NCBI GenBank assembly: GCA_028284945.1
Contig: JANQQJ010000012.1
Coordinates: forward strand, 1-42,093
Direction of reading: 5' to 3'
DNA from: Alphaproteobacteria bacterium
Lineage (GTDB): Bacteria > Pseudomonadota > Alphaproteobacteria > SMXS01
DNA: 42,093 nucleotides
Of this stretch, positions 9,450 through 27,152 are shown piece by piece. How positions within the stretch are numbered: the stretch's first letter is position 1; each line of letters starts with the position of its first letter. A program made the translations under genes and the position numbers. Below the pieces are notes generated by a model. The model ran no database searches. It saw only the letters and a program-made list of their open reading frames with translations, and was not told the DNA's origin.

Positions 9450-10181
9450 TCAGCCGGCGCTTTCGACGACCACCAAAGACAGGTTATCGGGGGCGCCGCG
9501 CTCGAGGCACAAGCGAACCAGTTGGTCCGCTGATTCGCTCAAGCCCTCTTGGGCAATGATCTGAGCGATTTCCTCAGCCGAGCAAACATTGGTGACCCCG
9601 TCGGTTGCCAATAGGAAAATATCACCCGCTTCCACCGGCCCGTGGACCGTATCAAGCTCGGTACCATCATGCGCGCCAATCGCCCGGGTGATGACATTGC
9701 GCATGGGATGATCTTCGGCGTCTTCATCCGTGATATCCCCAGCATCGACCAGTTCCTGGACAAAGCTGTGGTCCTTGCTCAAAAGCTCGGCTTGCCCGTT
9801 TCTGATCCGGTAGAATCTGCTGTCGCCAGCCCAAAGGCAGGCAAAGTGATCGTCGAAGATCAGCATCGCGACCACGGTTGCACCCATGGTCTGGTCATCG
9901 GAAATGGCCGCCCCCTGGCGGTAGAGGTCGGCATTTGTTACTTCGAGGGCACCGCGCACCGCGCCTAAGAAACTGCGGCCGTCAGCCGGTGCTGGAATCG
10001 CTTCAAGAGCATCAACAATTCGGGCCGACGCAACATCACCACGTTGATGTCCGCCCATGCCGTCGGCGACTGCAAACAGACCGATATCGGTTTTTTCAAG
10101 GAACGCGTCCTCGTTCAGGCGGCGAACCTTCCCTCGATGAGTCCGCCCCACAGAGCGGTACGTCAGCAGTCCATTATACAT
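9450..10181 (-). CDS. PP2C-family Ser/Thr phosphatase (PppA/Stp1-like)
   Basis: Metal-dependent protein phosphatase of 243 residues. All family motifs are seen: RGKVRRLNEDAF, VADGMGGHQRGDVAS, GATVVAMLIF, WAGDSRFYRIRNG, LLATDGV and the C-terminal GAPDNLSLVVV, which together provide the metal-binding aspartates. No membrane segment, so cytoplasmic. It is the last gene of the minus-strand signalling locus, 27 bases after the DotU/TssL-like gene. In type VI secretion the analogous PppA removes the phosphate that PpkA places on the FHA protein; the kinase and FHA genes in this locus make the same job likely here, by inference. Ribosome site weak (GGGGCGAG). Confidence 0.94.
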   Translation of the reverse strand: MYNGLLTYRSVGRTHRGKVRRLNEDAFLEKTDIGLFAVADGMGGHQRGDVASARIVDALEAIPAPADGRSFLGAVRGALEVTNADLYRQGAAISDDQTMGATVVAMLIFDDHFACLWAGDSRFYRIRNGQAELLSKDHSFVQELVDAGDITDEDAEDHPMRNVITRAIGAHDGTELDTVHGPVEAGDIFLLATDGVTNVCSAEEIAQIIAQEGLSESADQLVRLCLERGAPDNLSLVVVESAG

Positions 10182-10208
10182 GTCTGGCGGACTCGCCCCG
10201 TTAAAGAC

Positions 10209-11744
10209 CTAGAACCAAGCCGGTTGAAGGTACCGCTGCGCGGTCAAAGCATCCGACCGCACATTCTTTTGCAGCACAATAACCATCTTGTCAGGAAAGT
10301 CGGCGTTCCCGGCGCCCGCGTCAATAGTCTCTGGCAAAGGACCGATACCCCAACTGTTCAATCGGGACTGATCGGAAATCCAGCTTGATAGATGCTCGCG
10401 CACTTCTTCGGCGCGCGCTTTTGCTAATTGACGGGCCTGATCCGCCGCCGCCCCAAAGGCAACGCCGCCACCGGCCATCGCGATAAGATCGACCGGGCCG
10501 TCACCTTGGGACAACGCCGCGCCGAGACGGCGCACGGTGCCGGCGCTGGCGGTATCCAGTTCACTGCTGCCAGGTTGGAAAAGGGTTGAGGCAGGGACGC
10601 TGAACAAAATGGAGGTTTCGGTTTCAGCGACCTGAACGGCGCCAGACGCTATGTCGGTCTGTATGGCGGTCTTGGCCCTGGATGCCAATTGATCGGCAAC
10701 AGGTTGCAGCAAACTGGGAGTTTCAACCGCAACATCAGCGCCCTGGTCACTTGCTGTGCCACCGCCATAGACCCAGACGGCCAGGGCAAGCGCCCCAACG
10801 ACCAAAAGAATGCCGGCTGCTGCCATGGTGACCGGGTTTACCAGTGCCAGGCTTCGGCCGGTTGCGCCACCGGCATAGGAAACAGCCCCCGGCCGTTCCC
10901 CCCGTGCGGCCCGGTCTCTTATGCGGCCAAGGAGACGTGCACGATGTTGATTGAGCAGCAACGGGCCGCGCGGGTCGGTCCGCAGCGATCCGCTGTATCC
11001 CAGTGCGAGCGCGATATAGAGCAACTCCCGCAAGCGCGAGTTGACACCGGTCTGTTCCATCGTGTCGACCAGCTCGAAAAAGCGTGCGCTTGCCGCCTCG
11101 CGGTCTAGCCCCTCACCGACAAGCAGTCGATCCCGCCACTTATCCTTGTCCGGCCAGCGGCCACTGAGAACCAGATCGTCGATCAACGCGGCGAGGACGA
11201 ACCGTGCCGGCTCTGCCTCCTGCTCTGCCAGCGTGAATTGCTGTGCTTCTTCATCAAAAACGAACAGGCTTTCCTCGGCTGCGAAGCGAACAGCAGCCAG
11301 ATCAGGCACCTCGCCGGGCGACTCGCTCAACAGTGCCGCCAATCGAAGAAGCCGTGCGCCAGCGGCAACAATCAGGTTGCCGTGCATAAGGTCGACGTCA
11401 ACACGGCCAAAACTCAAACTGTCAGGACCGCTCAGGTCCAACCGGACCGTATCAGTGGCCACGGCAGCGGGCTCTTCTACCACGGCTTTCGGGGGTTCAG
11501 CCGGGACCGGCGGCGGCACTTTGGGGGGCTCTGAGGGCGGCGCAGGTTCCGGCGCCGGCGGTGCCGGCTCCGGAGCAGGGGGTGATTCAGAGGCGGGCGG
11601 AGGCGCCGGCGGACTGGTTTTGGCCGGGCCGATAATGGTTTGGTCCAGATCAGGCGACGATGCCTCTTCCTGTTCCGGCGGCGCCGGTTCAGGGGTTACG
11701 TCATTCTCGTCATCGTCTAGCCCGAAGGGGTCCTTGCCAGCCAT
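10209..11744 (-). CDS. DotU/TssL-like protein with Pro-rich N-terminus and OmpA-like C-terminus
   Basis: 511 residues in four parts. Residues 1-95 are disordered and very rich in Pro, Glu and Ala, with a DQTIIG motif at T36. About 122-280 match the IcmH/DotU (TssL) cytoplasmic fold: ARLLRLAALLSE, RFVLAALIDDLVLSGRWPDKDKW, FFELVDTM and LRELLYIALALGYSG. One membrane helix lies at about 304-326. The tail (about 375-495) resembles an OmpA peptidoglycan-binding domain (LFQPGSSELDTASAGTVRRLGAAL, LAKARAEEVREHL), but the usual GHTD-type aspartate is replaced by AMAGGG. TssL anchors the type VI membrane complex with TssM and TssJ; neither is visible here. A GGAGG 8 bases before the ATG supports the start. 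Confidence 0.8.
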   Translation of the reverse strand: MAGKDPFGLDDDENDVTPEPAPPEQEEASSPDLDQTIIGPAKTSPPAPPPASESPPAPEPAPPAPEPAPPSEPPKVPPPVPAEPPKAVVEEPAAVATDTVRLDLSGPDSLSFGRVDVDLMHGNLIVAAGARLLRLAALLSESPGEVPDLAAVRFAAEESLFVFDEEAQQFTLAEQEAEPARFVLAALIDDLVLSGRWPDKDKWRDRLLVGEGLDREAASARFFELVDTMEQTGVNSRLRELLYIALALGYSGSLRTDPRGPLLLNQHRARLLGRIRDRAARGERPGAVSYAGGATGRSLALVNPVTMAAAGILLVVGALALAVWVYGGGTASDQGADVAVETPSLLQPVADQLASRAKTAIQTDIASGAVQVAETETSILFSVPASTLFQPGSSELDTASAGTVRRLGAALSQGDGPVDLIAMAGGGVAFGAAADQARQLAKARAEEVREHLSSWISDQSRLNSWGIGPLPETIDAGAGNADFPDKMVIVLQKNVRSDALTAQRYLQPAWF

Positions 11745-11776
11745 GTCAGCGAACCTCCGCGCGGCGTCTCGCGATT

Positions 11777-12760
11777 CTAGTCATCCGCATTCTCCAGCTC
11801 ACGCAGACGCGCTTCATAGCCATTCCTGAAATCTGTCATGAATTGGCTGCTATCCAGATCAGCGACTTCTCTCTCGACGGTTTCGAAGTACTTCTGATAC
11901 GCGTCCCATGACGCAGACTTCTTGCCGCCTGCCGACATGATCGACATCGCACTCCGCTGACTCAATAGACGCTCTACCTCCAGCGGGTTCAGCCGGTCAA
12001 TCAGCTGGGCCACCGCACTGTGCATGCCCGACAACAGCGCCATCTGATGCCGCTTAACATCCTTGAACGCCTCATCCACCGCCTCATCTGCCGGCATGTA
12101 TCCGGGACTATCGGAAGCAAGAATTCGGAACGGTAATTCTTCGGGCGTCAGCGCCTTGAACGGGTTAGCCTTGCCGCGCGTGACCAGGGTTGCTTCGGCC
12201 CGGAACTGCGCCTTGACCACCGACCGGTCATGCAACAGGTCATGCAGGTTATCGATGAACTGCCGATAGAGCTGGCCCGCCGCAAAAAGCGTGTGGGCGT
12301 CGGCGCCCCGCATCAGCACTGGGTCAAGACCCGCCCCTTCGATGAAGGCCTCCAATGCTGACGAAGAAACCGGCGTGGCGGGAGCCTGTGACGCGGCGCT
12401 CTGTGCCGGCGTTGGTGCACTCGCTACATCAGCACCCGCATCCGCCTCGAGCCGAAGCTCAAGCGTATAGCCCCCGATCGAGAAGGTGTCCCCATCGGCT
12501 GCACGGTACGGTTCGCCCTTGGGCTGGCGGTCGGACGATCCGTTCAGGAATATCCCGTTCGAGCTATGGTCGGTAACCGTCGCACCCGTAGCATCGGCGG
12601 TGATCTCGCAATGATGCCGCGACAACTGCCGGTCGGGATCATCAAGCACCCAGTCGCAATCCGTTCCACGGCCCAACATCATCGTGGAATTCTCCAAGGT
12701 GCGTTCGCCTGAAGACGCGCCCCCTTCTGCGCTATAGAGCTTGAGATTTACGCGCGGCAC
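11777..12760 (-). CDS. tagH: T6SS-associated FHA protein TagH
   Basis: 327 residues with a GTG start at 12760, chosen because AGGAG lies 9 bases upstream and because starting there (PRVNLKLYS) avoids a 92-base overlap with the preceding gene. Residues 6-104 form an FHA domain with all phosphothreonine-reading elements: MMLGRGTDCDWVLDD, LSRHHCEI and SSNGIFLNG. After an Ala/Pro linker, residues about 145-325 match the TagH C-terminal domain (LYRQFIDNLHDLLHDRSVVKAQF, NPFKALTPEELPFRIL, AQLIDRLNPLEVERLL, YQKYFETVEREVADLDSSQFMTDFRNGYE in outline). In type VI systems TagH/Fha recruits a phosphorylated partner during assembly. It sits directly upstream of the DotU/TssL-like gene, as in type VI clusters. 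Confidence 0.88.
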   Translation of the reverse strand: MPRVNLKLYSAEGGASSGERTLENSTMMLGRGTDCDWVLDDPDRQLSRHHCEITADATGATVTDHSSNGIFLNGSSDRQPKGEPYRAADGDTFSIGGYTLELRLEADAGADVASAPTPAQSAASQAPATPVSSSALEAFIEGAGLDPVLMRGADAHTLFAAGQLYRQFIDNLHDLLHDRSVVKAQFRAEATLVTRGKANPFKALTPEELPFRILASDSPGYMPADEAVDEAFKDVKRHQMALLSGMHSAVAQLIDRLNPLEVERLLSQRSAMSIMSAGGKKSASWDAYQKYFETVEREVADLDSSQFMTDFRNGYEARLRELENADD

Positions 12761-12797
12761 TCGGTTTTTCTCCTGATAATGTCTGACCTCTTGCGGG

Positions 12798-14999
12798 TCA
12801 GCGGTTTGATGCGTTGGCCATTTTGCGGGGCCCGGATAGCTCCCCACGAGACACAGAGATGCGTTGCTGCTGCTGCGCTTGCTCAGCATTCAGATCGGCA
12901 ATCAACGATTGATACTCGGGCAGCCCCCGCAGTGATGCAAGCGCCGGGTCCCAGCGAACCGCCGAGATTCCGGCAAATCGATGCAATACAGCACGGCTAA
13001 GCGCCGCCATCGCCTGCTCGGTCTCGCCGCGGACAGCAAGCACACGGGCCTCCAAATACGTCAATTGTGGTGTATCGATACCTGCCGCGCGGTGCTCTGC
13101 CAGATAGGCGTCTACGCTTCGTAGCAGCGCGTCTGAGCCAGCCTGATCGCCTAAATGACGCCGCGCCTGCGCAAGCGTAACAGCCGGCAATAAGATCGGC
13201 GTGCGCGCAAACAATGGCCCCACTGCCCCGCCACCGGAATCCATTGGCCCCAACAAATCGACAACGGTCTCGTCATGACCGGCGACCGCTTCAACGTCAG
13301 CCAGCTCATAGGTTAGCGCCTGGGAGCCGGGTTGCGCCTGATAGGCTGCCCGCGCACCGGATACGGCACTGCCGATATCGCCCCGGGACAGGTTCACCCA
13401 CTGACCGATGTCATTAAGCCTCGGCGCCGCATCATCTATCGCACCGATGTCCAGCAGGGTCAGACCCAGCGCCAATCGCACCGCTGGGTCGGCGGGATCA
13501 TCAAGATACGCGCCCCGCAACAAATTGATCGCCTCGACCGGCCGCCACATATCCGCAAGAAGCGCTGCACGGGCGAGACTAACGTTCCGGTTATCCGGAT
13601 AGAGTTGACCCATCCGCGTTAACAAAGCCTCTGAATCGCGCAACTGTTTTCTCTCGGCCATCAGGCGCGACATATTCAACGCGACGGCAAGACTATCAGG
13701 ATCGGCGGCAAAGGCCTGATCCAGACTGAAAAAGGCCTCCAGCCGTTGCCCCGTCGACAGGTGTGCCTGGTAAAGCCAGAGATGCGCGTCCCCCAGTCCG
13801 GGGTCTATACTGACCGCACTCTGCAACGCGGCGATAGCATTATCGGTTCTGCCGCTGGTGAGCTCGAACAGGCCCTCGATGGCCTTAACATAGGCGGATG
13901 GTTCAGAGACCAGGCTCTTTGCCTTTGTCAGGTAGGGTCGCGCCCGGGACAACGCGTCAGAGACCTTCATTTCCCCATAGGTTTCTGGCGACCGGGCCTG
14001 TTGAAGCAAAACTTCAGCGCTTCCTGCATAAGCGTCGGCGAAATCCGGGTCCGCCTTCATGGCTTGGCTGAAATACACCAGTGCGGCATTGAGGGATTCG
14101 GGCGTACGCTTGGTCATTTCGGCGCGGCCCATCGCGAACAGCTCAGCCGGGTCCGCCACCTCTGCTAGTTCCACGGGCGCCTGCTCGGCGTCCCCCGTCA
14201 TGATCCCGCTGACCTTGGTGACAATCTCGTCCGAGATGTCGTCCTGCACTGCAAGAAGGTCGGTAACGTCGCGGTCCACCGTTGCCGACCAGACCTGAAA
14301 CCCCTCCTTCGCATCAAGCAGACGCGCCGTCACACGAAGCTGATCGCCTACCTTCTGCACACTGCCTTCTAAGACAGCATCCACTTCAAGTGACCGCGAA
14401 ATTTCTCTTACGCTGGCACCGTCTGAAAACTGGATCGACGCGGACCTGGACGCTACCTGCAGTCCCGGTACCATCGACAAGCGGTTGCGAACGTCCGACG
14501 CAAGCGCCTGCGAGAACATCGCTTCTTCGGCTTCTACCGACAGATTTTCAAACGGCAGGACAGCGATCGCCGATCCACCCACCTGCCGGTCACTCGAGCC
14601 ACCGCCCGTCCCACTGCCGGTCAAGAACACGCTATAGACCATTGCCCCGGCGATAATGACGACCGCCGCCAGCATCACATAGTCTCCGATCCGAACCCGG
14701 CCAGAGGCCGCCTCGCCTCCCTTGGTCCGGCGCAGCCCCTCGGGTGTCATTTCGAACGCCCAAGCTATGAGCATTGTAATTGGAAAACCGACCGCAAGCA
14801 GGAAGAAGACGAAGGAGCCCGCCCATTCCGGCAGCAAAAGTATTTCAGCGGTCTCGGATATCACCTGGACCATGACCCAGCTGACAACCATATAGGCCGC
14901 TGCCACGCGCACCACGTTGCGCCGTTTAAGTTCCGAAATGAGTCCTATCACGCCCGCCGCCTGAAGATGTGTCTCGTCAGCCGGTTGGTCCTCGCCCAC
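12798..14999 (-). CDS. Membrane protein with FlgO/TolB-N-like domain and TPR array
   Basis: Up to 733 residues. The start is uncertain: a GTG at 14999 gives the longest product, and a GTG at 14951, just before IGLISELKRRNVVRVAAAY, gives the N-terminus usual for this family; neither has a clear ribosome site. Three membrane helices lie at about 29-50, 60-83 and 106-127. A FlgO-like domain follows (SAIAVLPFENLSVEAEEAMFSQALASDVRNRLSMVPGLQVASRSASIQF in outline, residues 143-265), then tetratricopeptide repeats to about 700. Such proteins often carry an N-terminal CadC-type or cyclase domain; here only the membrane anchor is present. It lies 37 bases upstream of tagH, so probably co-transcribed. 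Exact role unknown. Confidence 0.85.
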   Translation of the reverse strand: MGEDQPADETHLQAAGVIGLISELKRRNVVRVAAAYMVVSWVMVQVISETAEILLLPEWAGSFVFFLLAVGFPITMLIAWAFEMTPEGLRRTKGGEAASGRVRIGDYVMLAAVVIIAGAMVYSVFLTGSGTGGGSSDRQVGGSAIAVLPFENLSVEAEEAMFSQALASDVRNRLSMVPGLQVASRSASIQFSDGASVREISRSLEVDAVLEGSVQKVGDQLRVTARLLDAKEGFQVWSATVDRDVTDLLAVQDDISDEIVTKVSGIMTGDAEQAPVELAEVADPAELFAMGRAEMTKRTPESLNAALVYFSQAMKADPDFADAYAGSAEVLLQQARSPETYGEMKVSDALSRARPYLTKAKSLVSEPSAYVKAIEGLFELTSGRTDNAIAALQSAVSIDPGLGDAHLWLYQAHLSTGQRLEAFFSLDQAFAADPDSLAVALNMSRLMAERKQLRDSEALLTRMGQLYPDNRNVSLARAALLADMWRPVEAINLLRGAYLDDPADPAVRLALGLTLLDIGAIDDAAPRLNDIGQWVNLSRGDIGSAVSGARAAYQAQPGSQALTYELADVEAVAGHDETVVDLLGPMDSGGGAVGPLFARTPILLPAVTLAQARRHLGDQAGSDALLRSVDAYLAEHRAAGIDTPQLTYLEARVLAVRGETEQAMAALSRAVLHRFAGISAVRWDPALASLRGLPEYQSLIADLNAEQAQQQQRISVSRGELSGPRKMANASNR

Positions 15000-15417
15000 C
15001 CGACAACGGCACTATAGGCGACGACCGAACGGCTTGGTAGGGCCTGCACGGCAGCAATTCGATGTTTAGTTTGAGGTATTTGGGCGTGATGCTGCCGCGA
15101 TTCGGCTGAATGCCATTATCTGAAGGCGCTTCAAATCACCCGCGGCACCCTATAACCACTGTCGCACCGCTGAACGTAACCCCAAATGTTGTGGCCCTGA
15201 GGATCAAGGTCGGAATATATAGTGGTATCCGTGCGAATGTGCTGGTCCATTGCGATGTGACATTTACGGCTGACAAGGAATAGTCAATCATACTGTTGTT
15301 CCAGTCGAATCTGCGGCGAGGCGTCTCGGTTCATCTGGAGATTCAATGCGCTACGCACTATAAACAAGCGCTGTGAAAGATGGGGTTATCCAAGCGAATC
15401 GCCATAGGGGGTCGGTC
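15000..15417. other. 418-base divergent intergenic region
   Basis: Separates the FlgO/TPR gene (minus) from the LysM/TPR lipoprotein gene (plus), so it must hold promoters in both directions. An AT-rich patch around 15213-15222 (GAATATATAG) is the most promoter-like stretch, but no convincing -35 and -10 pair is visible. No long open frame, tRNA or strong hairpin was found. It is the largest gap inside the signalling locus. Confidence 0.5.
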
Positions 15418-16536
15418 GTGCCGCGAGTAAGCAAATATATCGTTATCGTTCTTGCAGCAGGGGCTTTGACAGCCTGTGCGGGTCAGAAACCGGAAGAACC
15501 TGTCGCCCAGGCGCCTGCGCCTGTTGTGGTGGCAGAACCAGAGGTCGTCGATACCGGCCCTGAAGAAGAGGTGTTTGAGGCAACACCGGGCCTGTCTGCG
15601 CGCGAACGGTTCCGCAAGTCGATCCGCCTGTTGGAAACCGGCCAGGCTGGCCAGGCTCAGGCTGAGCTTGAAGCCTATCTGGCCGAGGTCGACAATAGTA
15701 CGCTGGGCCAGAACCTGCTTGAGCAGATCACGACGCCTGTTGAGGACTACTTCCCTGAGGAACACTTCATGGTGAACCTGGCATCGGGCGATTCTTTGTC
15801 AACGTTGGCCAAAGCCTATCTGGGTGATGCGCTGAAGTTCTACATTCTGTCCCGCTATAACGAGCTGGAAAATCCAAGCCAGGTGACAGTCGGACAGGCC
15901 ATCAAGATTCCGGCGACGGAAGAAACGCTGGCTGCCCGCGAAATGATCATCGCCGAGGCCGCCGCGCCCGCACCGGAAGAGGCACCTGAAGAAGTCGCTG
16001 AAGCGCCAGCCGAGGTGGCGCAAGAGGCGCCAGCAGCAGCACCCGAAGAGCTAACAGGTTGGGACAAGGTTAACGCGCTGACGGCGGCGGGCGACTATCA
16101 TGCAGCAGCGGATCATCTGGAAACGATGGGTGGCTCCATGGCCGGCGGCAATGCCGTATCCGCAGCCCAAGTCTATATGACCAGTGCAACGGAACTCGGC
16201 AGAACAGATGCACTCAAGGCGGCTGAACGCTCGCTGCGTGCCGGCTCGCTCTACCTTCAACAAGCAGATGAGCCCGAACGCGCCCTGGAAGCCCTTCAGC
16301 TTTCCACCTCGTTGAATCCGGAAAACACCGAGGCGCAAGAGCTGCTGTCGACGGCGCAAGCCACCGTCGCTGACCAGTATTACCGGGAAGGGTTGGCCGC
16401 CTACCGCAAACAGGAACTCGATCAGGCGATTACCAGTTGGGATCGTGTGCTCGAAATTGATCCGGAGCACGCCAACGCCAATCTGTACCGCGCCCAAGCG
16501 CTAGACCTTAAGGATAAGCTGTCGAAGATGAAGTAG
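15418..16536 (+). CDS. Lipoprotein with LysM domain and TPR repeats
   Basis: 372 residues. The GTG at 15418 is chosen: AGGGGG lies six bases upstream and the product then begins MPRVSKYIVIVLAAGALTAC, a lipoprotein signal with lipobox LTAC and lipidated C20. A longer in-frame GTG at 15373 would spoil the signal. After an acidic Pro/Ala linker comes a short helical segment, a LysM domain at about 117-166 (FMVNLASGDSLSTLAKAYLGD...VTVGQAIKIP) expected to bind peptidoglycan, a second Pro/Ala/Glu linker, and TPR repeats to the end (YYREGLAAYRKQELDQAITSWDRVLEIDPEH in outline). It is the only plus-strand gene in the locus, divergent from the FlgO/TPR gene and converging with a second TPR lipoprotein. 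Confidence 0.87.
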   Translation: MPRVSKYIVIVLAAGALTACAGQKPEEPVAQAPAPVVVAEPEVVDTGPEEEVFEATPGLSARERFRKSIRLLETGQAGQAQAELEAYLAEVDNSTLGQNLLEQITTPVEDYFPEEHFMVNLASGDSLSTLAKAYLGDALKFYILSRYNELENPSQVTVGQAIKIPATEETLAAREMIIAEAAAPAPEEAPEEVAEAPAEVAQEAPAAAPEELTGWDKVNALTAAGDYHAAADHLETMGGSMAGGNAVSAAQVYMTSATELGRTDALKAAERSLRAGSLYLQQADEPERALEALQLSTSLNPENTEAQELLSTAQATVADQYYREGLAAYRKQELDQAITSWDRVLEIDPEHANANLYRAQALDLKDKLSKMK

Positions 16537-16576
16537 GCTGCCGCTGGCTTGCGCGGTACGGGCCCGAGACTTTCAA

Positions 16577-17527
16577 TTAGTTAAACGACTGCAGCCGGGC
16601 GCGCATCCGCTGTGCCTGGTCCAGCCGCTGTTTCGCCTGAAGATGCGTCGGATCATAGGTGAGCGCCTCTGCAAGCAGTTCAATCGCCCGGTCCAGATCC
16701 GAGTTCATCAGATCGAGGCCCTCGGTATAAAGCGAGGTTGCCAGGTCTGACCGAGCGGCCGTGATGGATTTGCTGATCGTTGCCTGGGCGCCTGCCGGCG
16801 TCTCGGACGCCGCCTCAAGGAAGGTTAGCGTTTCACGTAGATTCCCGGACTGACGACTTTTCTGAGCCAGCGCAACATAGGCCCGCTGACGGTAACTTGC
16901 TGCGGTGGAATCCTCCGGGTCGCGTTTCAACTGCTGATCGGCAAGATCGATGACCTCGCGATACGCACCACGCCCAAAGGCAGCTGCTGCTTTTTGATCA
17001 AAGTCGCCCGTGCCACCCTGCTGCTGGGGCTGCGGCTTCGAATGGCTGGCGCGATATTCGGCCAGCGCTTTGTCGTCTTTGGTTTTCTGATTGGCCAGGA
17101 CAGATTGGCGCTCGATTTCCCTTAAACGCCGGATCGCCTGTGCGTCACTGCCATCCAAGGCCAAAACTTTCAGAAAAGCTGTCCGGGCGGCGCTGCGCCG
17201 GTTCTTGGACAGCGCATCTTCACCCTGTTGAAGCAATGCCCGTTTCCGGCTGGCGATAAGGGCCTCGAGCCGGCGAATTTCCTGCTGAGCTTGCCCGTCA
17301 CGAGGTTTTACCGCGGCGATCAATCGCCATTCGACCAGCGATGCCGCAAGATCACCATTGGCCTCGAAGGCCTGGGCGGTCGAGCGCCGGTCGCTGACAA
17401 ATTCCGCTGCAGCATTGTCAACCGGATCGACAATCGTTACTGGCCCGGGTTCTTGCTGAGCGGCACAGGCGGTCAGCACCAGCGCGAGCGCGGATAGGGT
17501 TACGATCTGACGCGCATGCCCTATCAT
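16577..17527 (-). CDS. TPR lipoprotein
   Basis: 316 residues beginning MIGHARQIVTLSALALVLTAC, a lipoprotein signal with lipobox LTAC (C21). The mature protein is a helical tetratricopeptide array (ALLQQGEDALSKNRRSAARTAFLKVLALD, FGRGAYREVIDLADQQLKRDPED, ELLAEALTYDPTHLQAKQRLDQAQ), with a Gln-rich break near residue 160. Its ATG overlaps the TGA of the deacetylase gene by four bases (ATGA), so translation is probably coupled. Architecture mirrors the C-terminal half of the LysM lipoprotein encoded convergently next door, which suggests they share a process at the outer membrane or cell wall. No enzyme motif. Exact function unknown. Confidence 0.85.
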   Translation of the reverse strand: MIGHARQIVTLSALALVLTACAAQQEPGPVTIVDPVDNAAAEFVSDRRSTAQAFEANGDLAASLVEWRLIAAVKPRDGQAQQEIRRLEALIASRKRALLQQGEDALSKNRRSAARTAFLKVLALDGSDAQAIRRLREIERQSVLANQKTKDDKALAEYRASHSKPQPQQQGGTGDFDQKAAAAFGRGAYREVIDLADQQLKRDPEDSTAASYRQRAYVALAQKSRQSGNLRETLTFLEAASETPAGAQATISKSITAARSDLATSLYTEGLDLMNSDLDRAIELLAEALTYDPTHLQAKQRLDQAQRMRARLQSFN

Positions 17528-18552
17528 TTCAGCGATACACTTTCATAGACGGACAGATACTTCTTCAAATCGTTCAGCGTGTGGTCCGAATAAATCATGT
17601 CGCGGCGCAGCAACATGGGATGCGTATAGCTCGCATTACCGCCCCGCTGGACGGTCGCGGCGATCGTATAATCTTCGCCCTCAAGGATGGAAACTGCCGT
17701 GTCGCTGGTATCGCCATAGGGATAAGCGAAATGCCGAATTTTCTCGCCCATCTTCTCGCTCAGGATGCGGTCCGGCGTCTTGACCTCTTTGCCCACGCGG
17801 TCCGAATAGGCCTTCCCCGGTTTTTCCGACCCATTGAGGGACATGCTGGTATGGGACTTGGAGTGCGATTGAATATCGATCACGCCGCTGCGGTCCATCT
17901 CGCGCATCTTGTCCCAGCTGAGCGACAGTCCGCCGCCGACAAAATCGGTATAGATGAACAGCGTGGCCGTCAGGCCCAACCGGCGAAGAATGGGGAAGGC
18001 AATGTCGTAAACCGAGCGATACCCGTCATCGATTGTAATGACCACGGCGCGTTTGGGCAGCGGCTTAGACCCATTCAAAAACCCTTCAAGATCCCGCAGC
18101 GGGATCACCCGATAGCCGTTGTCGATCAGATATTTCATCTGGGCTTCGAATGCACCGGCGGTGACCTGCATGCGATTGCGAGGCCGGCCATTGGTGAATT
18201 GGTGGTAGCAAAGGATCGGCACGACCTGATAGCCGTCGGGATAGACTGCGCTGGAATTGAACGGCCGTTTCGGCAGAATCACAAATTGCCCCGGCGTTAC
18301 GCTTCTACCATTGATGTCTTCCAGGACTGGCGCAAGGGTCTGGTCCCGCAAATACTGCTCGGCAAGCGACGCAAACGTATCGGTGGCGCTGGCACGAACG
18401 ATCATGAAGTCGTTTGTATCGGCGACAACAGACTTTAAAGGACCGGTGATTTCCGTGCGCTGTTGTTGCGCAGCGCAGCCGACCAAGAGAACAGCCAGCC
18501 CAAAAGCAGCAAGCCGCTTCGCCCCCCAAGCGATCGTGTAGCCCCGTTGCAT
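17524..18552 (-). CDS. Lipoprotein polysaccharide deacetylase (NodB domain)
   Basis: 342 residues with a lipoprotein signal (lipobox LVGC, C26). Residues about 49-94 resemble a degenerate LysM-like module (FMIVRASATDTFASLAEQYL...VTPGQFVILP). The NodB domain follows: VPILCYHQF, the metal-site aspartates in VITIDDGYRSVYD (D175, D176), the two histidines in QSHSKSH (H230, H234) and FAYPYGDTS. Such enzymes remove N- or O-acetyl groups from peptidoglycan or exopolysaccharide; the substrate is not evident. The ribosome site AAGGAG is formed by the last two sense codons of the upstream kinase gene, six bases away, and the next gene overlaps its stop, so it is firmly inside the operon. Confidence 0.9.
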   Translation of the reverse strand: MQRGYTIAWGAKRLAAFGLAVLLVGCAAQQQRTEITGPLKSVVADTNDFMIVRASATDTFASLAEQYLRDQTLAPVLEDINGRSVTPGQFVILPKRPFNSSAVYPDGYQVVPILCYHQFTNGRPRNRMQVTAGAFEAQMKYLIDNGYRVIPLRDLEGFLNGSKPLPKRAVVITIDDGYRSVYDIAFPILRRLGLTATLFIYTDFVGGGLSLSWDKMREMDRSGVIDIQSHSKSHTSMSLNGSEKPGKAYSDRVGKEVKTPDRILSEKMGEKIRHFAYPYGDTSDTAVSILEGEDYTIAATVQRGGNASYTHPMLLRRDMIYSDHTLNDLKKYLSVYESVSLK

Positions 18553-18558
18553 TAACGT

Positions 18559-20547
18559 TTACTCCTTCGGCGATGCCCTGATTACGACCGTGGCACCAGG
18601 ATCCTCTCCATCGCCGTCGTCGTCCGTGTCGTCTTGGTCGTTCGCGGATTGGGTTGGCTTCGTCCGCCCCGCGATCACCGTTACGTCGGGATTGTCTATT
18701 TCAGGCTCATTCTCGTCGGCGATTGAGGCCTTGGGCGGCGTTGGCCGTCCGATGACGGTCGCATCCTCCGGCGCTGCTGCCTTTGCGTCAGAAGGCGCCG
18801 TACTGCCTGCCCCGAGCATGACAGTTGCATCAGCCAAGGCATCGTCTGTTTCCACGTCATCCAGAACCGGCTCTTGAACACCGGATGTATTGACTGTGAC
18901 CTCTTCAACCTCGGTTCCTGTCTGCACCCTGTCGCGGCGTATCATGGAAGCCTGAAGCGAATCCGCCATGCGGTTGAAGGAGTTAAACAACTCGCCAAAT
19001 TCGTCATTCCGGGTGTCGGATATGCGCTGATCGAGGTCTCCATCGCCCAGGTCAGCCATGGCCCGGCGCAGCCGCTTCATCGGCCGCGCCAGCAAGCCGC
19101 CGAAGACATAGAGCATGCCAACAACCACAACCATGGTGATCGCGCCCAGAATGAACATCAAAAGCCGCGTCGTCGACATGACGCTTTCCAGCCCCTCGCG
19201 CGATGATGCCAGGTATACCGTTCCGATGGGGCGTGGCTCACCCTGATACATAAACAAGATCGGCGTATCGAACTTGAAGACATGCTCTTCTTCAGCGTTC
19301 TCGACGAGATAGGCCGTGAAGTCGTCGCCCTGGTGGACCAGTTCCGCGCTCTCAGGCGGCATGTAGGGCTGTCCGATCAAGGCCGGGTCGGTCGCGGCGC
19401 GAACGACTCCCGCATTATCTGCAATAGTCAGGTAGACAAAGGTGTCGCGTTCACTGGCGTTCTTGACGTCGATTTCCAGCATGCTCCAGTCTTCGCTGAG
19501 CACGGGCACCGCCGCATCCGTTGCAATAAACTTGGCGAGTGACGCCCCCGAGTCGAGAACCTGTTTCTGAATTGCCTGGCCCTGCTGATAGAACACGCCG
19601 AGCATGCTGACCAGCAAGACAAGCCCCACGACAGCTGCGCTGCCGGCCGCCCACTTGATTTTGAGGGGGACGAATTTGTTCCGCTCCGCCTGATCTTCCT
19701 GGTCGATCAGGGACTCAAGCTCGCGCTCCAGCGCTTCGGCGACTTCTGCGCCGGTCTGGTAGCGTTTCTCGGGCCGCTTGTTGAGCAGCTTGGAGATGAT
19801 GCGCTGAAGGCCAACGGCCAGGTCCGGTGCAGCTTTTTTGATCGGCTCCGGCTCCTGCTGGGTAATCTGCAGCAGCAGTGTCGTCATGCTACCGGCGTCA
19901 AAAGCCTTCTTGCCTGTGACAAGCTCGTAAAGAATGACGCCGACCGAAAACAGATCTGACCGGCCATCAATTTCGGCGCCGAGCGCCTGCTCCGGCGACA
20001 TGTAACGAGGCGTTCCAAGAACGGTGCCCGCCTGGGTCCGGTTGATTTCTTCAGTGCCCGACATGCGCGCAATGCCGAAATCCGCGACCTTGATACTGTC
20101 GCTGCCGCGCGTGAACAGAATATTGGCTGGCTTAACGTCCCGGTGGACCACGCCTTCTCTATGGGCATAGTCGAGCGCCCTGGCGAGCTGAATCCCGATA
20201 TTCAGCACCCGCTTCATCGGCAGCTTGCCACCCTTTTCGAGCACGTCTCCCAGGTCCTGTTCGTCCAGGAACTCCATGGTGATGTATGGGTTGTTGCCAA
20301 CCCGCCCGACGTCGAAAATGGTGACAATGTTGGGGTGCGAAATCGTGCCGGCGGCCTTGGCTTCCCGCAAAAACCGGTTCACATATTCTTCATCAACGCA
20401 GAGTTCGTCCTTCAAAACCTTGATCGCAACCGTGCGGTCGATCTCTGGATCATGCGCACGATAGACGTCAGCCATGGCGCCTTCACCAAGCTGCTCGTCG
20501 ACGATATACCGACCAATGGTCTCGAATTTCTGCGATTTCGCAGACAT
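18559..20547 (-). CDS. Membrane Ser/Thr protein kinase with sensor segment, HAMP and phospho-motif tail
   Basis: 662 residues. The N-terminal kinase domain (about 13-275) is complete: LGEGAMADVYRA glycine loop, K43 in AIKVLK, HRDVKPANILF with catalytic D137, DFGIAR with D156, and GTPRYMSPEQ. Helix one is at about 299-319; about 140 extracytoplasmic residues follow; helix two (LLMFILGAITMVVVVGMLYVFGG) leads into a HAMP domain (ARPMKRLRRAMADLGDGDLDQRI...NSFNRMADSL). The last 120 residues are acidic, disordered and carry four D/G-x-T-V motifs (T575, T597, T623, T653). It is the likely PpkA counterpart of the locus. AGGAGG upstream of the ATG supports the start. Its final codons supply the ribosome site of the deacetylase gene. 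Confidence 0.94.
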   Translation of the reverse strand: MSAKSQKFETIGRYIVDEQLGEGAMADVYRAHDPEIDRTVAIKVLKDELCVDEEYVNRFLREAKAAGTISHPNIVTIFDVGRVGNNPYITMEFLDEQDLGDVLEKGGKLPMKRVLNIGIQLARALDYAHREGVVHRDVKPANILFTRGSDSIKVADFGIARMSGTEEINRTQAGTVLGTPRYMSPEQALGAEIDGRSDLFSVGVILYELVTGKKAFDAGSMTTLLLQITQQEPEPIKKAAPDLAVGLQRIISKLLNKRPEKRYQTGAEVAEALERELESLIDQEDQAERNKFVPLKIKWAAGSAAVVGLVLLVSMLGVFYQQGQAIQKQVLDSGASLAKFIATDAAVPVLSEDWSMLEIDVKNASERDTFVYLTIADNAGVVRAATDPALIGQPYMPPESAELVHQGDDFTAYLVENAEEEHVFKFDTPILFMYQGEPRPIGTVYLASSREGLESVMSTTRLLMFILGAITMVVVVGMLYVFGGLLARPMKRLRRAMADLGDGDLDQRISDTRNDEFGELFNSFNRMADSLQASMIRRDRVQTGTEVEEVTVNTSGVQEPVLDDVETDDALADATVMLGAGSTAPSDAKAAAPEDATVIGRPTPPKASIADENEPEIDNPDVTVIAGRTKPTQSANDQDDTDDDGDGEDPGATVVIRASPKE

Positions 20548-20695
20548 TTCAGCCTCCTATGGGCACAGGGCCCAGCTGACGGCACCCCCTTCAGCAGAGG
20601 CAACTTTAGTGTAGAGAGTGCGCCGCAGCAAAATATTCAGTGCAAAAAAGCCGAAAAAATTGTGCTTTTTCCTGCAAATGACGTCACTTGGCCGC

Positions 20696-21175
20696 CTATT
20701 CACCATCATTGCGCGAAATATTCTCAACGGCTCTGCCCTCAGATCCGGCGATCAATGCCGCACCAACAACTCTTTCATAGAATTCCGCGGGCCCAACGCC
20801 GCCGATAACGGCATAGGCATATCCTTGGGTTTGTTGAGCGTCGAGGACGGACAGCAAAAGCCCTTTTCCAATCCCGTGTTCACGCCAACCCTCGTCGACA
20901 CCAGTGGGGCCAAAGAAGTTTTTTGCCGTTACGTCGTAACAGGCAAACCCCAACAGCTGATCTGCCCGGACAGCGACATGGCAACTGACGGGCTGACGTG
21001 AAAATCCAGCCTCCACCTCCGGCACCCATCCGGGGAACCGGGCGTCAACCCAAGACAGAACCACGGGCTTCTCTGTCAAACCGGCCGGCCTGATGAGAAT
21101 GCCCGATGCCGCAAGCCCTTCCAATACCGGCGCAAGCGGCGGCAGGTCATAGAGCCTGACAATCATGTCCTGCAT
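20696..21175 (-). CDS. GNAT-family acetyltransferase
   Basis: 159 residues with the acetyl-CoA binding signature in outline: FFGPTGVDEGWREHGIGKGLLLSVL, matching the R/Q-x-x-G-x-G loop followed by a helix, and preceded by the usual beta strands (CHVAVRADQLLGFACYDVTAKN). The acceptor is unknown. The ATG at 21175 follows GAGGA with four bases of spacing. It lies between the RsbW-like gene (47-base gap) and the kinase gene (148-base gap) on the same strand, so it is probably transcribed with the signalling genes, though it could be a passenger. No membrane segment. Confidence 0.85.
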   Translation of the reverse strand: MQDMIVRLYDLPPLAPVLEGLAASGILIRPAGLTEKPVVLSWVDARFPGWVPEVEAGFSRQPVSCHVAVRADQLLGFACYDVTAKNFFGPTGVDEGWREHGIGKGLLLSVLDAQQTQGYAYAVIGGVGPAEFYERVVGAALIAGSEGRAVENISRNDGE

Positions 21176-21222
21176 GGCATCCTCGAACGGCGGTGCTGCG
21201 TTTAGAGCCTGGTCAAACTGGC

Positions 21223-21645
21223 TTATTCCGCCGGAATAGTCACCGAAAAGCGGTTCCGGCCCTCATCCGTCCGTTCGTATGACAAGTCGCTGGCGGCTTT
21301 GCGCACCAGCATCAACCCCAGCCCCCCAATCTTGGCCTCTTCAATTGATTTGGGCAGTTCGGGGTCAGATTTGCCGGTTGGATCGAAAGGCTCTCCACCG
21401 TCATCAAACGTCATCGTGATGGAGCCGGGCCCCTGTTGAAGCTCGACCGCAACGGGCTCGTCCCCACCGCCCGCATATCCATAGCGCACAATGTTGGTGA
21501 CGATTTCTTCAAACACCAATTCAGCATTAAAGTGGGCCTTGGTGCCTACGGCGCTGCCATCGAGCCATTCCCGTAGGTCCGCGAAGGCCGTTTCAAAACC
21601 TTCGTGTGTTGCCGGGAACGTCAGAACCTGAGGCTGGTTCGACAA
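21223..21645 (-). CDS. RsbW-like anti-sigma/switch kinase (HATPase_c_2)
   Basis: 140 residues of the GHKL ATPase fold used in partner-switching modules. The N box is ELVFEEIVTNIVRYGY, the G1 box FDDGGEPFDP and the G2 box IGGLGLMLVRKAASDLSYER. In such switches it phosphorylates the STAS protein and sequesters a sigma factor or other target. The frame is the same as that of the upstream STAS gene, separated by a TAG and three codons; the only start available is TTG at 21645. No ribosome site is seen, so expression probably depends on translational coupling. No sigma factor gene lies nearby, so its second partner is unknown. Confidence 0.9.
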   Translation of the reverse strand: MSNQPQVLTFPATHEGFETAFADLREWLDGSAVGTKAHFNAELVFEEIVTNIVRYGYAGGGDEPVAVELQQGPGSITMTFDDGGEPFDPTGKSDPELPKSIEEAKIGGLGLMLVRKAASDLSYERTDEGRNRFSVTIPAE

Positions 21646-21654
21646 TGAAACGCA

Positions 21655-21996
21655 CTAGCCGCTGACAGCGGCGACCGCCTCTTCTTCCGTCGCGGCGATC
21701 GGTACAATGTCGCCCATGGAGACATTGTCGAAAACTTCTTTGACCAACTCCTGCGGCGCATAAAGCGCGATATTGGCTTCCTTGGCGCTCAGCGCGCGGG
21801 CAACCGCGATGAACATCCTGATGCCCATGGACGCAATGAAATCAACGCCCGACAGATCGACAATTGCGCTTTTGCCGCCGGGGACAATCGCCGCGGTAAA
21901 GCGCGTCTCAACCTGGTCGACGCCAGGTGTGTCAAGCCGACCGCTGAGCACGATCTTCTTGAGGTCGTCGTTCATATCCGAGATGTCCATGTCCAC
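21655..21996 (-). CDS. STAS-domain anti-anti-sigma factor (RsbV-like)
   Basis: 113 residues of STAS fold. The phospho-acceptor region reads VDLSGVDFIASMGIRMFIAVARAL, with the conserved serine in IASMGI. When unphosphorylated this class binds the RsbW-like kinase and frees its client. The start is the GTG at 21996, 8 bases after AAGGAG; an ATG two codons on is less well spaced. It lies 9 bases ahead of the RsbW-like gene and about 110 bases after the FHA-SpoIIE phosphatase, the enzyme expected to dephosphorylate it. Cytoplasmic. Confidence 0.93.
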   Translation of the reverse strand: MDMDISDMNDDLKKIVLSGRLDTPGVDQVETRFTAAIVPGGKSAIVDLSGVDFIASMGIRMFIAVARALSAKEANIALYAPQELVKEVFDNVSMGDIVPIAATEEEAVAAVSG

Positions 21997-22106
21997 GATT
22001 AGGGCTCCTTAGAGAGTTCTCAATGGTCAGCACTTTGGATACCGCCAACAGGCCACGCCACGCAAGGCCGGCAAACGGCGCGCGACGGTATCATAGGCAT
22101 CGAATA

Positions 22107-23231
22107 CTACTCGAATGTGACAACAAGCAGCGAGAAGTCGTCGTCGAACGGGCCCGGTTGCGCCACATCTTTGACCGCCTGGAAGAGCCGCTGGGGCTCG
22201 TCGACGTCATCCAGGGGTTCGTTGAGAAGTGGCAGGAAATCGCTGAGCGCCCATTGAACGCCGTCTTTCGTGACGATTTCAAAAACACCGTCACTGAACA
22301 GATAAAGCGTCGACCCCGGCGGCACTGTCGCTTCCGCGCACTTATAACTGTAACCGGGCATAGCGCCGATCATCAGCGACTTTGTTTGGTATTCCTCGTA
22401 TCCCGTGCGACTGACAGGCACCAAATATCCCGCGTGATGACCTGCTGTCGCATAGCGCATCAGCCGTGTCGTCTTGTTGTAGACGCCATACCAGATCGTG
22501 AAATACTGACCGTCATGGGTGTCCATCTGGAACATGTCGTTCAAGCTGCCCAGCACCGCCGCCGGGTCCAGGAAATCGGTATTCGGCAGCGCCCGCTGCC
22601 GCAGCACGTTCAACACCGAGACTGAGTGCATGGCGGCGCCCACACCGTGGCCCGAAACGTCAACCACATAGGCAACAAAGTGCTCGTCATCGAGCTGATA
22701 GTAGCCGAACGCATCGCCACCCAGCGCTGCAGATGGCATGTAGAACCAGTCGGTCTGGATGGGGCCGCGCTTTATGGGGTCCGGCAGCAGCGACAAAACA
22801 TAATTGCTGGCCTTGTCGAGGTCACGGTCCAGTTCTTCGGACTTGGCAACGTCGGTTTTGCTGCGCAGCTCATATTTGTAAATTTGCTGCCCCAGTTGAA
22901 TGATGCTGCCATCGGCAACAATAGCCGGCTCTGTAAGCTTGGCGCCGTCGACATAGGTCCCGTTGGTGGAGCCCAGGTCGCTGATCACCAGCGTGTTGTT
23001 GAGCACGCATGCCTGCATATGGCGCCGGGACACACCTGTATCATTTACAACGACTTCGCCGTTCTGGTCCCGGCCGAAGCCCATCGGGGTGGGACCCACC
23101 TCAATTCGTTCCCCCGGTTTGTTCCCTTGGACGGCAATGAGGTAGTGCCCCATTTCGTCGCGCATTTCTGAAACGGAGCCCGCGCCGCCCGTGACGACGA
23201 CTGTACTGTCCAGCTCTGAGTCTTCAGCCAA
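22107..23231 (-). CDS. FHA domain fused to SpoIIE/RsbU-type PP2C phosphatase
   Basis: 374 residues. A short disordered N-terminus carries LDSTVVVTGG (T10). The FHA domain (about 30-125) has its full reading set: MGFGRDQNGEVVV, GVSRRHMQA and GSTNGTYVDG. A short coiled linker leads to a SpoIIE-type phosphatase domain: YMPSAALGGDAFGYYQLD, VVDVSGHGVGAAMHS, ATAGHHAGYLV, LFSDGVFEI and DDDFSLLVV. It should dephosphorylate the STAS protein encoded next. The FHA domain offers a way for the membrane kinase to steer the switch through phosphothreonine. Start is TTG at 23231 after GGGGGTTGG; no better codon is available. First gene of the minus-strand locus. Confidence 0.93.
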   Translation of the reverse strand: MAEDSELDSTVVVTGGAGSVSEMRDEMGHYLIAVQGNKPGERIEVGPTPMGFGRDQNGEVVVNDTGVSRRHMQACVLNNTLVISDLGSTNGTYVDGAKLTEPAIVADGSIIQLGQQIYKYELRSKTDVAKSEELDRDLDKASNYVLSLLPDPIKRGPIQTDWFYMPSAALGGDAFGYYQLDDEHFVAYVVDVSGHGVGAAMHSVSVLNVLRQRALPNTDFLDPAAVLGSLNDMFQMDTHDGQYFTIWYGVYNKTTRLMRYATAGHHAGYLVPVSRTGYEEYQTKSLMIGAMPGYSYKCAEATVPPGSTLYLFSDGVFEIVTKDGVQWALSDFLPLLNEPLDDVDEPQRLFQAVKDVAQPGPFDDDFSLLVVTFE

Positions 23232-26195: not shown

Positions 26196-27152
26196 ATGTT
26201 TCGTTTGGCCAACATCATTGTTCTGATCATTTGCACATGGTTCGCGCTGAGCCAGACCGCGTGGGCCACCCGCTACGTCATCTATTACAAATCTGACGCC
26301 AGCCCGGCTTCCGCCGTGATCGGACTGCCCTATACGCATGTCATTTTGTCTTTCGTCACCGCGCGCGGTGCGGCGGATGGTGCCGTCCGGCTCAGCACCC
26401 CGGACCGATTGCAGCCCGCCCTTCTTGAGACACATAAACTCAAAGCCGATGGCAAGAAGGTGCTGATTTCATTCGGTGGCGGCGATATGCCGGCGGCCGC
26501 CTATCAATCGCTTGTAGGCAGGGAAAAAGCGTTGGCCGCCGCGCTGGCCGGATTCGTCCGGAAACATGGTCTCGACGGTGTCGATATTGATTTCGAAATC
26601 AGCGCAGCACTATCGCCTCTCGCCGCGGAGCGCCCCTTTCGCGGCAAGCGATTCCTGGTTCAATTGACCAAGGAACTCAGGGCGTTGCTGCCAAGAGACG
26701 CTTTGCTGACCCACGTTCCCCAAGCGCCCTATTTAGACCCCGACTGGCACGGTGAGCCTTATCTAGAGGTTCTTCGCGAGGTCGGCCGCCATATCGACTG
26801 GATCACGGTGCAGTATTACAACAATCCCGGCTTTGATAATCCGACCGGCATCGATGCGGATGGCCAGGGCCGTCCCTCGAGCTTTGCCGGAATCGTGAAT
26901 GGAGCGAACAAGCTAAACTGGCCGGCGCATAAGACGTTGATCGGAAAACCGATCTTTCACCATGACGCGTCGACAGGATATATGTCACCCGCGCGTCTGA
27001 AAGCCGACATTGTCGAACCCCTGGTGAAGAAATATGGCTCAGCCTTCGGTGGCCTAACCGGTTGGCAGTTCTCAACCCTTACTGCAGACCACCGGTATTG
27101 GAATCGCCAGATGGCGCCAGCGCTCAAACTATCGGAAGACAACCGCCCATAA
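26196..27152 (+). CDS. Secreted glycoside hydrolase family 18 protein
   Basis: 318 residues with a Sec signal peptide (MFRLANIIVLIICTWFALSQTAWA). The GH18 barrel signatures are both present: VLISFGGGD on strand three and LDGVDIDFEIS on strand four, with the catalytic acid E134 and the assisting aspartates D130 and D132. WITVQYYNNPG and GLTGWQFSTL at the end also fit. GH18 members cleave chitin or N-acetylglucosamine glycans; no chitin-binding module is present, so the substrate is open. The ribosome site is weak (GGGA). It follows the TonB receptor by 106 bases, which suggests, but does not prove, a common substrate. Confidence 0.9.
   Translation: MFRLANIIVLIICTWFALSQTAWATRYVIYYKSDASPASAVIGLPYTHVILSFVTARGAADGAVRLSTPDRLQPALLETHKLKADGKKVLISFGGGDMPAAAYQSLVGREKALAAALAGFVRKHGLDGVDIDFEISAALSPLAAERPFRGKRFLVQLTKELRALLPRDALLTHVPQAPYLDPDWHGEPYLEVLREVGRHIDWITVQYYNNPGFDNPTGIDADGQGRPSSFAGIVNGANKLNWPAHKTLIGKPIFHHDASTGYMSPARLKADIVEPLVKKYGSAFGGLTGWQFSTLTADHRYWNRQMAPALKLSEDNRP

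What the first reader, a model, noticed from the sequence alone, without database searches (positions are those of the whole stretch)
9450..23231. Type VI-like kinase/FHA/DotU locus without a secretion machine
Seen in sequence: membrane Ser/Thr kinase, PP2C phosphatase, TagH and a DotU/TssL-like protein lie together with an RsbU-V-W-like switch, a NodB lipoprotein, LysM/TPR lipoproteins and a FlgO/TPR protein. Known: PpkA, PppA and Fha control type VI assembly, and TssL works with TssM and TssJ. Here no TssB, TssC, TssK, TssM, TssJ, ClpV or VgrG is visible, and IalB and a TonB receptor bound the locus. Inference: an envelope-spanning system, derived from type VI parts, controlled by threonine phosphorylation and possibly independent of a contractile tail.
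Basis: partly seen in the sequence, partly recalled or inferred. Interest (0 to 1): 0.87.

Follow-up and report, generated by a model that had tools for sequence, protein, structure and literature searches.

The report
Type VI switch without its weapon
An alphaproteobacterium and its relatives keep the kinase, phosphatase, phospho-reader and membrane-anchor parts that normally switch on a type VI secretion weapon, but most of these genomes appear to lack the weapon, and the parts sit with cell-wall enzymes as if the switch had been re-used to control the cell envelope.

Summary
All named genes are present at 9450-23231; kinase, phosphatase, TagH and DotU are clear, intact family members. The genome (99% complete) has no TssC, TssK or TssM (IcmF_C). 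Three relatives from a sister genus share the locus and lack all three; a fourth has the locus plus a separate type VI system. In 289 Alphaproteobacteria, TagH without TssC occurs only in this family. TagH, DotU and PP2C are under purifying selection, so this is not a decaying relic. The kinase-NodB-TPR-LysM part is a wider module: it abuts real type VI clusters in Alteromonadaceae and occurs without any TssC found in Halieaceae and Nitrospinota genomes. Kinase tails carry a recurrent acidic-x-T-[VILM]-[VILM] motif (26 of 32 tails; shuffles 1.4). Similar sites lie at the N-termini of DotU and of a second FHA protein, an FHA-RsbU phosphatase, and resemble the TssL phosphopeptide bound by Fha in Agrobacterium. 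Best reading: the type VI threonine-phosphorylation switch, uncoupled from the machine and coupled to envelope lipoproteins and an RsbU/V/W partner switch. No secretion function is shown.

The parts
9450..10181 (-). PP2C-type Ser/Thr phosphatase (Stp1/PppA-like)
   Evidence: PF00481 61.6 bits; NF033484 214 bits, below its 230 cut-off; 57-61% identical in G001-G004; dN/dS 0.055 between G002 and G004
10209..11744 (-). DotU/TssL-like inner-membrane protein: disordered N-terminus with DLDQTIIGP (Thr36), TssL cytoplasmic domain, one TM helix, degenerate OmpA-like periplasmic domain
   Evidence: PF09850 96.7 bits; model resembles TssL 6y4r (TMt 0.78) and TssL1 4b62 (0.75); GHTD..N..LS peptidoglycan signature lost; motif
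11777..12760 (-). TagH/Fha: FHA domain plus T6SS_FHA_C domain; probable GTG start at 12760
   Evidence: PF20232 128 bits, FHA 58.6 bits; start judged from homologues and a ribosome-binding-like AGGAG; pThr-binding residues R, S, H, N, G invariant in 5 genomes
12798..14999 (-). TPR protein, three apparent N-terminal TM segments (read from sequence), TolB-like region, TPRs probably periplasmic
   Evidence: PF14559 86.6 bits; 42-45% identical at the same place in G001-G004; topology inferred
15373..16536 (+). LysM/TPR lipoprotein, divergently placed
   Evidence: LysM 22.6 bits, TPR; conserved in position in G001-G004 and in many Gammaproteobacteria loci
16577..17527 (-). all-helical TPR lipoprotein; start overlaps the NodB stop by 4 bases
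   Evidence: invariant lipobox Cys in 30 homologues; model pLDDT 91, TPR solenoid
17524..18552 (-). LysM-like plus NodB-domain polysaccharide/peptidoglycan deacetylase lipoprotein
   Evidence: PF01522 77 bits; PgaB/IcaB-like; catalytic DD and SHSxxH motifs invariant
18559..20547 (-). transmembrane Ser/Thr kinase: kinase, TM, Cache-like periplasmic sensor, TM, HAMP, cytoplasmic tail with four T-V-[MIV] sites
   Evidence: PF00069 177 bits, HAMP 60 bits; catalytic K, HRD, DFG invariant; tail motifs
20696..21175 (-). GNAT acetyltransferase-like protein
   Evidence: PF13508 22.9 bits, below cut-off; syntenic next to the kinase in G001-G005
21223..21645 (-). RsbW-type GHKL switch kinase
   Evidence: PF13581 78.5 bits
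21655..21996 (-). STAS (RsbV-type) protein
   Evidence: PF01740 50.7 bits
22107..23231 (-). FHA-RsbU: N-terminal LDSTVVV motif, FHA domain, SpoIIE/PP2C phosphatase
   Evidence: SpoIIE 130.5 bits, FHA 54.5 bits; N-terminal T motif in all 3 copies found

Best explanation
The locus is a stand-alone threonine-phosphorylation switch, built from the regulatory part of type VI secretion (kinase, phosphatase, TagH, and the TssL/DotU that TagH docks on) and working without the contractile machine. Proposed mechanism: the transmembrane kinase senses an envelope signal through its periplasmic Cache-like domain and phosphorylates acidic-x-T-[VILM]-[VILM] sites in its own cytoplasmic tail and, in this genome, at the DotU N-terminus. 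TagH binds these phosphothreonines through its FHA domain and gathers on the membrane with DotU. The FHA-RsbU phosphatase is recruited, or released from a self-bound form, in the same way; it then dephosphorylates the STAS protein and changes what the RsbW-like kinase holds. The adjacent PP2C resets the system. The lipoproteins (NodB deacetylase with a LysM-like region, TPR, LysM/TPR) are the sensed or regulated arm in the periplasm, probably wall or polysaccharide deacetylation. Shown: gene content, conservation, selection, absence of TssC/TssK/TssM, the recurrent motif. Inferred: phosphorylation, docking, the RsbW target, and the envelope output.
For: No TssC, IcmF_C or TssK in G000, G002, G003, G004 while the locus is kept in order. 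In 289 alphaproteobacteria the only three TagH genomes without TssC are from this family. Purifying selection: dN/dS TagH 0.10, PP2C 0.055, kinase 0.12, DotU 0.34. Kinase, NodB and pThr-binding residues intact. Motif in 26 of 32 otherwise variable kinase tails, 39 sites against 1.4 in shuffles (max 6 of 1000). N-termini of DotU/TssL: 17 of 23 carry T[VILM][VILM] against 1.4 by shuffling; the window's DLDQTIIGP fits the type VI pattern DLDxT[VIML][VIL]xP. In Agrobacterium, PpkA phosphorylates TssL at DLPpTVVEI and Fha binds it (PMC3953482). The DotU periplasmic domain lost its peptidoglycan signature in all five copies. G005 lost LysM/TPR-TPR-TagH-DotU-PP2C as a block.
Against: The DotU threonine is present in the window and G001 (RTVVEEP) but absent in G002-G004, so docking on DotU cannot be universal there. 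FHA-RsbU was found in only three of five loci; G003 keeps only STAS nearby and G004 shows none in the region read. Phosphorylation and binding are untested. Only three core type VI genes were searched genome-wide, and only the C-terminal IcmF domain for TssM. An Hcp-fold protein lies 6 kb away.
Confidence: 0.6

Rival explanations
1. A relic: an ancestral type VI cluster was lost and these are leftover regulatory genes on the way to decay.
For: TagH and DotU branch among type VI homologues; G005, in the sister genus g2, has already lost the block; DotU is the fastest of the main genes with dN/dS 0.34 and lost its peptidoglycan signature.
Against: Five genomes in two genera keep the block in order with intact active sites, four of them without core type VI genes; TagH 0.10 and PP2C 0.055 dN/dS; orphan TagH and DotU are each one well-supported clade, separate from G001's own type VI copies, so the divergence is old.
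Confidence: 0.12
2. An envelope-spanning export or surface-assembly apparatus, in which DotU, the membrane TPR protein and the lipoproteins form a conduit, possibly for the Sec-exported Hcp-fold protein.
For: DotU is a type VI/IVB membrane-complex protein with a periplasmic domain; the TPR protein has N-terminal membrane segments; three lipoproteins; an Hcp-fold protein with a signal peptide at 29251-29883.
Against: No TssM, no TssC, no TssK; no outer-membrane channel or transport ATPase in the locus; loss of the DotU peptidoglycan signature; no close copy of the Hcp-fold protein in the flanks read around relatives' loci.
Confidence: 0.15
3. A general kinase-FHA-NodB envelope-stress module in which TagH and DotU are incidental passengers picked up from a type VI cluster.
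For: The kinase-NodB-TPR-LysM module occurs without TagH or DotU in Halieaceae, other Pseudomonadales and Nitrospinota, in some with a small FHA protein; the kinase/NodB tree places the alphaproteobacterial copies next to copies from genomes without TssC.
Against: TagH-DotU-PP2C stay together and TagH is under strong purifying selection in the relatives that have them; in G005 they were lost together with the neighbouring TPR and LysM/TPR genes.
Confidence: 0.13

Closest known systems
Type VI secretion threonine phosphorylation pathway (PpkA-PppA-Fha, with TssL Thr14 in Agrobacterium tumefaciens)
   Same: Membrane Ser/Thr kinase, PP2C phosphatase, TagH/Fha with FHA_C domain and TssL/DotU; the DLDQTIIGP site resembles DLPpTVVEI (PMC3953482)
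   Different: No TssC, TssK or TssM in the genome; NodB/LysM/TPR lipoproteins and an FHA-RsbU partner switch in place of the machine; DotU periplasmic domain degenerate
Alteromonadaceae type VI cluster ending TssK-TssL-TssM-TagF-PP2C-kinase-NodB-TPR-LysM/TPR (e.g. Glaciecola sp. 33A, L054/L160)
   Same: Same kinase-NodB-TPR-LysM/TPR gene set, same kind of tail motif, next to TssL and PP2C
   Different: There it abuts a machine with TssC, TssK and TssM; NodB only 40-47% identical
GarA/OdhI FHA switches of Actinobacteria and RsbU/V/W partner switching
   Same: FHA-RsbU has an N-terminal T motif before the FHA domain, as OdhI/GarA do (background knowledge; FHA similarity), and a SpoIIE phosphatase with adjacent STAS and GHKL kinase
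   Different: FHA and RsbU fused in one chain; no sigma factor in the locus
Type IVB (Dot/Icm) IcmH/DotU
   Same: DotU domain passes the NCBI IVB model cut-off (56 against 50 bits)
   Different: Better scores to type VI models and long form; tree places it with long-form type VI TssL; no IcmF_C in the genome

Membership tests
Type VI secretion system | Sheath protein TssC (PF05943) | tested here: not met
   No match in G000, G002, G003, G004; control genome rings
Type VI secretion system | Baseplate TssK (PF05936) | tested here: not met
   No match in G000, G002-G009; found in G001
Type VI secretion system | TssM/IcmF (PF06744, C-terminal domain only) | tested here: not met
   No match in G000, G002-G009; found in G001. 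N-terminal IcmF domains not searched
Type VI secretion system | TssL/DotU | tested here: met
   PF09850 96.7 bits; model like TssL 6y4r
Type VI secretion system | TssB, ClpV, VgrG, TssJ | not tested
Type VI secretion system | Cytoplasmic Hcp tube protein | tested here: inconclusive
   One Hcp-fold protein in the window has an N-terminal signal peptide by sequence, unlike a tube protein
Type VI threonine phosphorylation pathway | Ser/Thr kinase with intact catalytic residues, adjacent PP2C | tested here: met
Type VI threonine phosphorylation pathway | FHA protein with T6SS_FHA_C domain and intact pThr-binding residues | tested here: met
Type VI threonine phosphorylation pathway | Phosphorylation of a partner and FHA binding | not testable with these tools
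   Only the site motif could be tested
RsbU-RsbV-RsbW partner switch | SpoIIE phosphatase, STAS protein, GHKL kinase encoded together | tested here: met
RsbU-RsbV-RsbW partner switch | Identified target of RsbW | not testable with these tools
   No sigma factor or other obvious target in the locus

The most novel reading that the evidence does not exclude
An undescribed, widespread envelope signalling module (kinase with FHA-docking tail, NodB deacetylase, TPR and LysM/TPR lipoproteins, PP2C) that exists independently of type VI secretion, was recruited as the type VI switch in Alteromonadaceae, and in one alphaproteobacterial family captured TagH and DotU to make a machine-free phospho-scaffold controlling the envelope and a partner switch.
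Probability: 0.45. Interest if true: 0.75.

Novelty: new variant of a known kind. Interest (0 to 1): 0.62.

Why it matters
If true, the phospho-switch known for firing type VI secretion can work without that machine, which means TagH and TssL/DotU have functions of their own. It also suggests a concrete docking code (acidic-x-T-[VILM]-[VILM]) linking PpkA-type kinases, TssL N-termini and FHA readers, testable with peptides. For annotation, it warns that TagH plus DotU is not proof of a type VI system.

Tried and rejected
Literature: four full-text searches for this gene set returned nothing; a broader one on incomplete or orphan type VI loci returned 43 papers, none of whose listed titles concerns a TagH/DotU locus without the machine; a search for FHA-linked partner switching gave only classical systems. 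Anti-phage defence: PADLOC hits are generic kinase-domain and PP2C similarity with no recognised defence neighbour, so rejected. Fold search of the TPR lipoprotein gave only generic TPR solenoids with low TM-scores, so it named no function. DotU as a type IVB protein: passes that model, but type VI models score higher and the tree and long form favour TssL. Relic hypothesis weakened by dN/dS and deep, separate clades. A general DotU-threonine docking claim for the orphan family was dropped because G002-G004 lack the site. The TagH tree has long branches and the exact sister group is not resolved.
Full report
1. The observation. On the minus strand, from 23231 down: FHA-RsbU, STAS, RsbW-type kinase, GNAT-like protein, transmembrane kinase, NodB lipoprotein, TPR lipoprotein; then, after the divergent LysM/TPR lipoprotein (15373-16536, plus strand), a TPR membrane protein, TagH, DotU and PP2C. 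Kinase and NodB are 6 bases apart and NodB and the TPR lipoprotein overlap by 4, which fits one transcript. TagH probably starts at GTG 12760. IalB and a TonB receptor flank the locus.

2. Is there a type VI machine elsewhere? G000 is 3.56 Mb and 99.13% complete. TssC, the IcmF C-terminal domain and TssK give no match, while the same searches find all three in the relative G001 and in a control genome. TssB, ClpV, VgrG and TssJ were not searched genome-wide.

3. Is the locus conserved without the machine? In the same family, G001-G004 carry the same block in the same order, 33-36% identical to the window over DotU, 51-56% in TagH, about 60% in the kinase and PP2C. G002, G003 and G004 (each about 100% complete) lack TssC, IcmF_C and TssK; G001 has the block on one contig and a separate type VI cluster on others. 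In an even sample of 289 Alphaproteobacteria, TagH occurs in 12; nine of these have TssC and the three that do not are G000, G003 and G004. FHA-RsbU/STAS/RsbW accompany the block in the window, G001 and G002; G003 keeps only the STAS gene nearby and G004 none in the region read.

4. Not a decaying relic. Between G002 and G004, dN/dS is 0.055 for PP2C, 0.10 for TagH, 0.12 for the kinase, 0.14-0.26 for the lipoproteins and the TPR protein, and 0.34 for DotU. Catalytic and phosphothreonine-binding residues are invariant. Orphan TagH and orphan DotU each form one clade (100/99 support), distinct from G001's own type VI TagH and TssL. G005 shows the alternative fate: it keeps GNAT-kinase-NodB, but the segment from within the TPR lipoprotein to the region beside the ileS-like gene is gone, taking LysM/TPR, TPR, TagH, DotU and PP2C together; TagH and DotU are absent from that genome. 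The G005 assembly is broken inside NodB, so that junction is not certain.

5. A wider module. A scan with the NodB alignment gave 37 loci. Kinase, NodB, TPR lipoprotein and LysM/TPR lipoprotein recur together in Alteromonadaceae, Hahella, Oceanospirillaceae, Halieaceae and other Gammaproteobacteria; NodB with a TPR lipoprotein in Nitrospinota. Of 36 genomes, 14 have TssC; many of the others are incomplete assemblies, but Paraglaciecola hydrolytica (L069) is a named-strain genome. In Glaciecola, Agaribacter and Bowmanella the module ends a real type VI cluster; in Glaciecola and Agaribacter the order is TssK-TssL-TssM-TagF-PP2C-kinase-NodB. In a joint kinase+NodB tree the alphaproteobacterial copies are sister to two gammaproteobacterial copies from genomes without TssC (98/96), and presence of TssC changes at least four to five times on the tree. 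So the kinase-NodB module is not itself clearly a type VI derivative; TagH and DotU are.

6. A docking motif. The kinase tails after HAMP are poorly conserved, yet 26 of 32 contain [DE]xT[VILM][VILM], 39 sites in all; composition-preserving shuffles give 1.4 (maximum 6 in 1000). Some tails come from related genomes, so they are not all independent. The window tail has DATVM, DATVI, DVTVI and GATVV. The same kind of site is at the DotU N-terminus (DLDQTIIGP, Thr36) and at the N-terminus of all three FHA-RsbU copies (LDSTVVV, DRTTVFV, LESTMVF). Among 23 long-form TssL/DotU proteins, 17 have T[VILM][VILM] in the N-terminal extension against 1.4 expected, with a common pattern DLDxT[VIML][VIL]xP. 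In Agrobacterium, PpkA phosphorylates TssL at Thr14 and Fha binds DLPpTVVEI (PMC3953482). The window DotU keeps such a site and G001 has RTVVEEP, but G002-G004 lack it; there the kinase tail is the remaining candidate ligand.

7. What changed in DotU. The acidic pair D189-D190 of the cytoplasmic domain is kept, and the model matches solved TssL cytoplasmic domains and OmpA-like periplasmic domains. All five orphan proteins lost the GHTD...N..LS..RA peptidoglycan signature, which the type VI TssL proteins with a periplasmic domain in the alignment keep wholly or in large part. This is what one expects if the protein no longer anchors a contractile machine, though it could still bind another envelope partner.

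8. Mechanism. Best supported: a stand-alone threonine-phosphorylation switch. The kinase senses the periplasm, marks its tail (and DotU here), TagH and FHA-RsbU read the marks, PP2C erases them, RsbU acts on STAS and RsbW, and the periplasmic NodB/LysM/TPR lipoproteins are the regulated or sensed arm. Gene content, conservation, selection and motif statistics are shown; phosphorylation, binding and output are inferred. No export function is shown.

9. Scores. New variant of a known kind; interest 0.62. The most novel reading not excluded is a widespread, undescribed envelope signalling module later recruited to type VI secretion (probability 0.45).

Noticed in passing
window 29251-29883 (-): Hcp-family protein (PF05638 82 bits, TIGR03344 below cut-off) with an apparent Sec signal peptide, in a genome without TssC, TssK or TssM. 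Such a protein would be exported to the periplasm rather than form a type VI tube.
   Followed up: partly
TssL N-termini in L007-L018, L054, L062, L067, L075, L158: The Agrobacterium TssL Thr14 site has look-alikes, a common D-L-D-x-T-[VIML]-[VIL]-x-P motif, across long-form TssL of Alphaproteobacteria and Alteromonadaceae, although PMC3953482 reported the site as not conserved in distant orthologues.
   Followed up: partly
L155:9000-12120 (G312): TagH-like FHA_C protein next to a Ser/Thr kinase at a contig end in a gammaproteobacterial assembly with no TssC or TssK found: possibly a second, independent TagH-kinase pair without the machine.
   Followed up: partly
L153 and L154 (G005): Block loss of TagH, DotU, PP2C, TPR and LysM/TPR genes in a relative, joining the TPR lipoprotein start to a remnant of a flanking gene near an ileS-like gene; the contig title names Kuenenia, apparently a mislabel since it matches this alphaproteobacterial family.
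   Followed up: yes
window 26196-27152 (+): Glycosyl hydrolase family 18 (chitinase-like) protein just beyond the TonB receptor.
   Followed up: no
L081 (Desulfobacterales contig): NodB, LysM/TPR, PP2C and a truncated TagH-like protein at a contig end, hinting that the combination extends beyond the groups sampled here.
   Followed up: no
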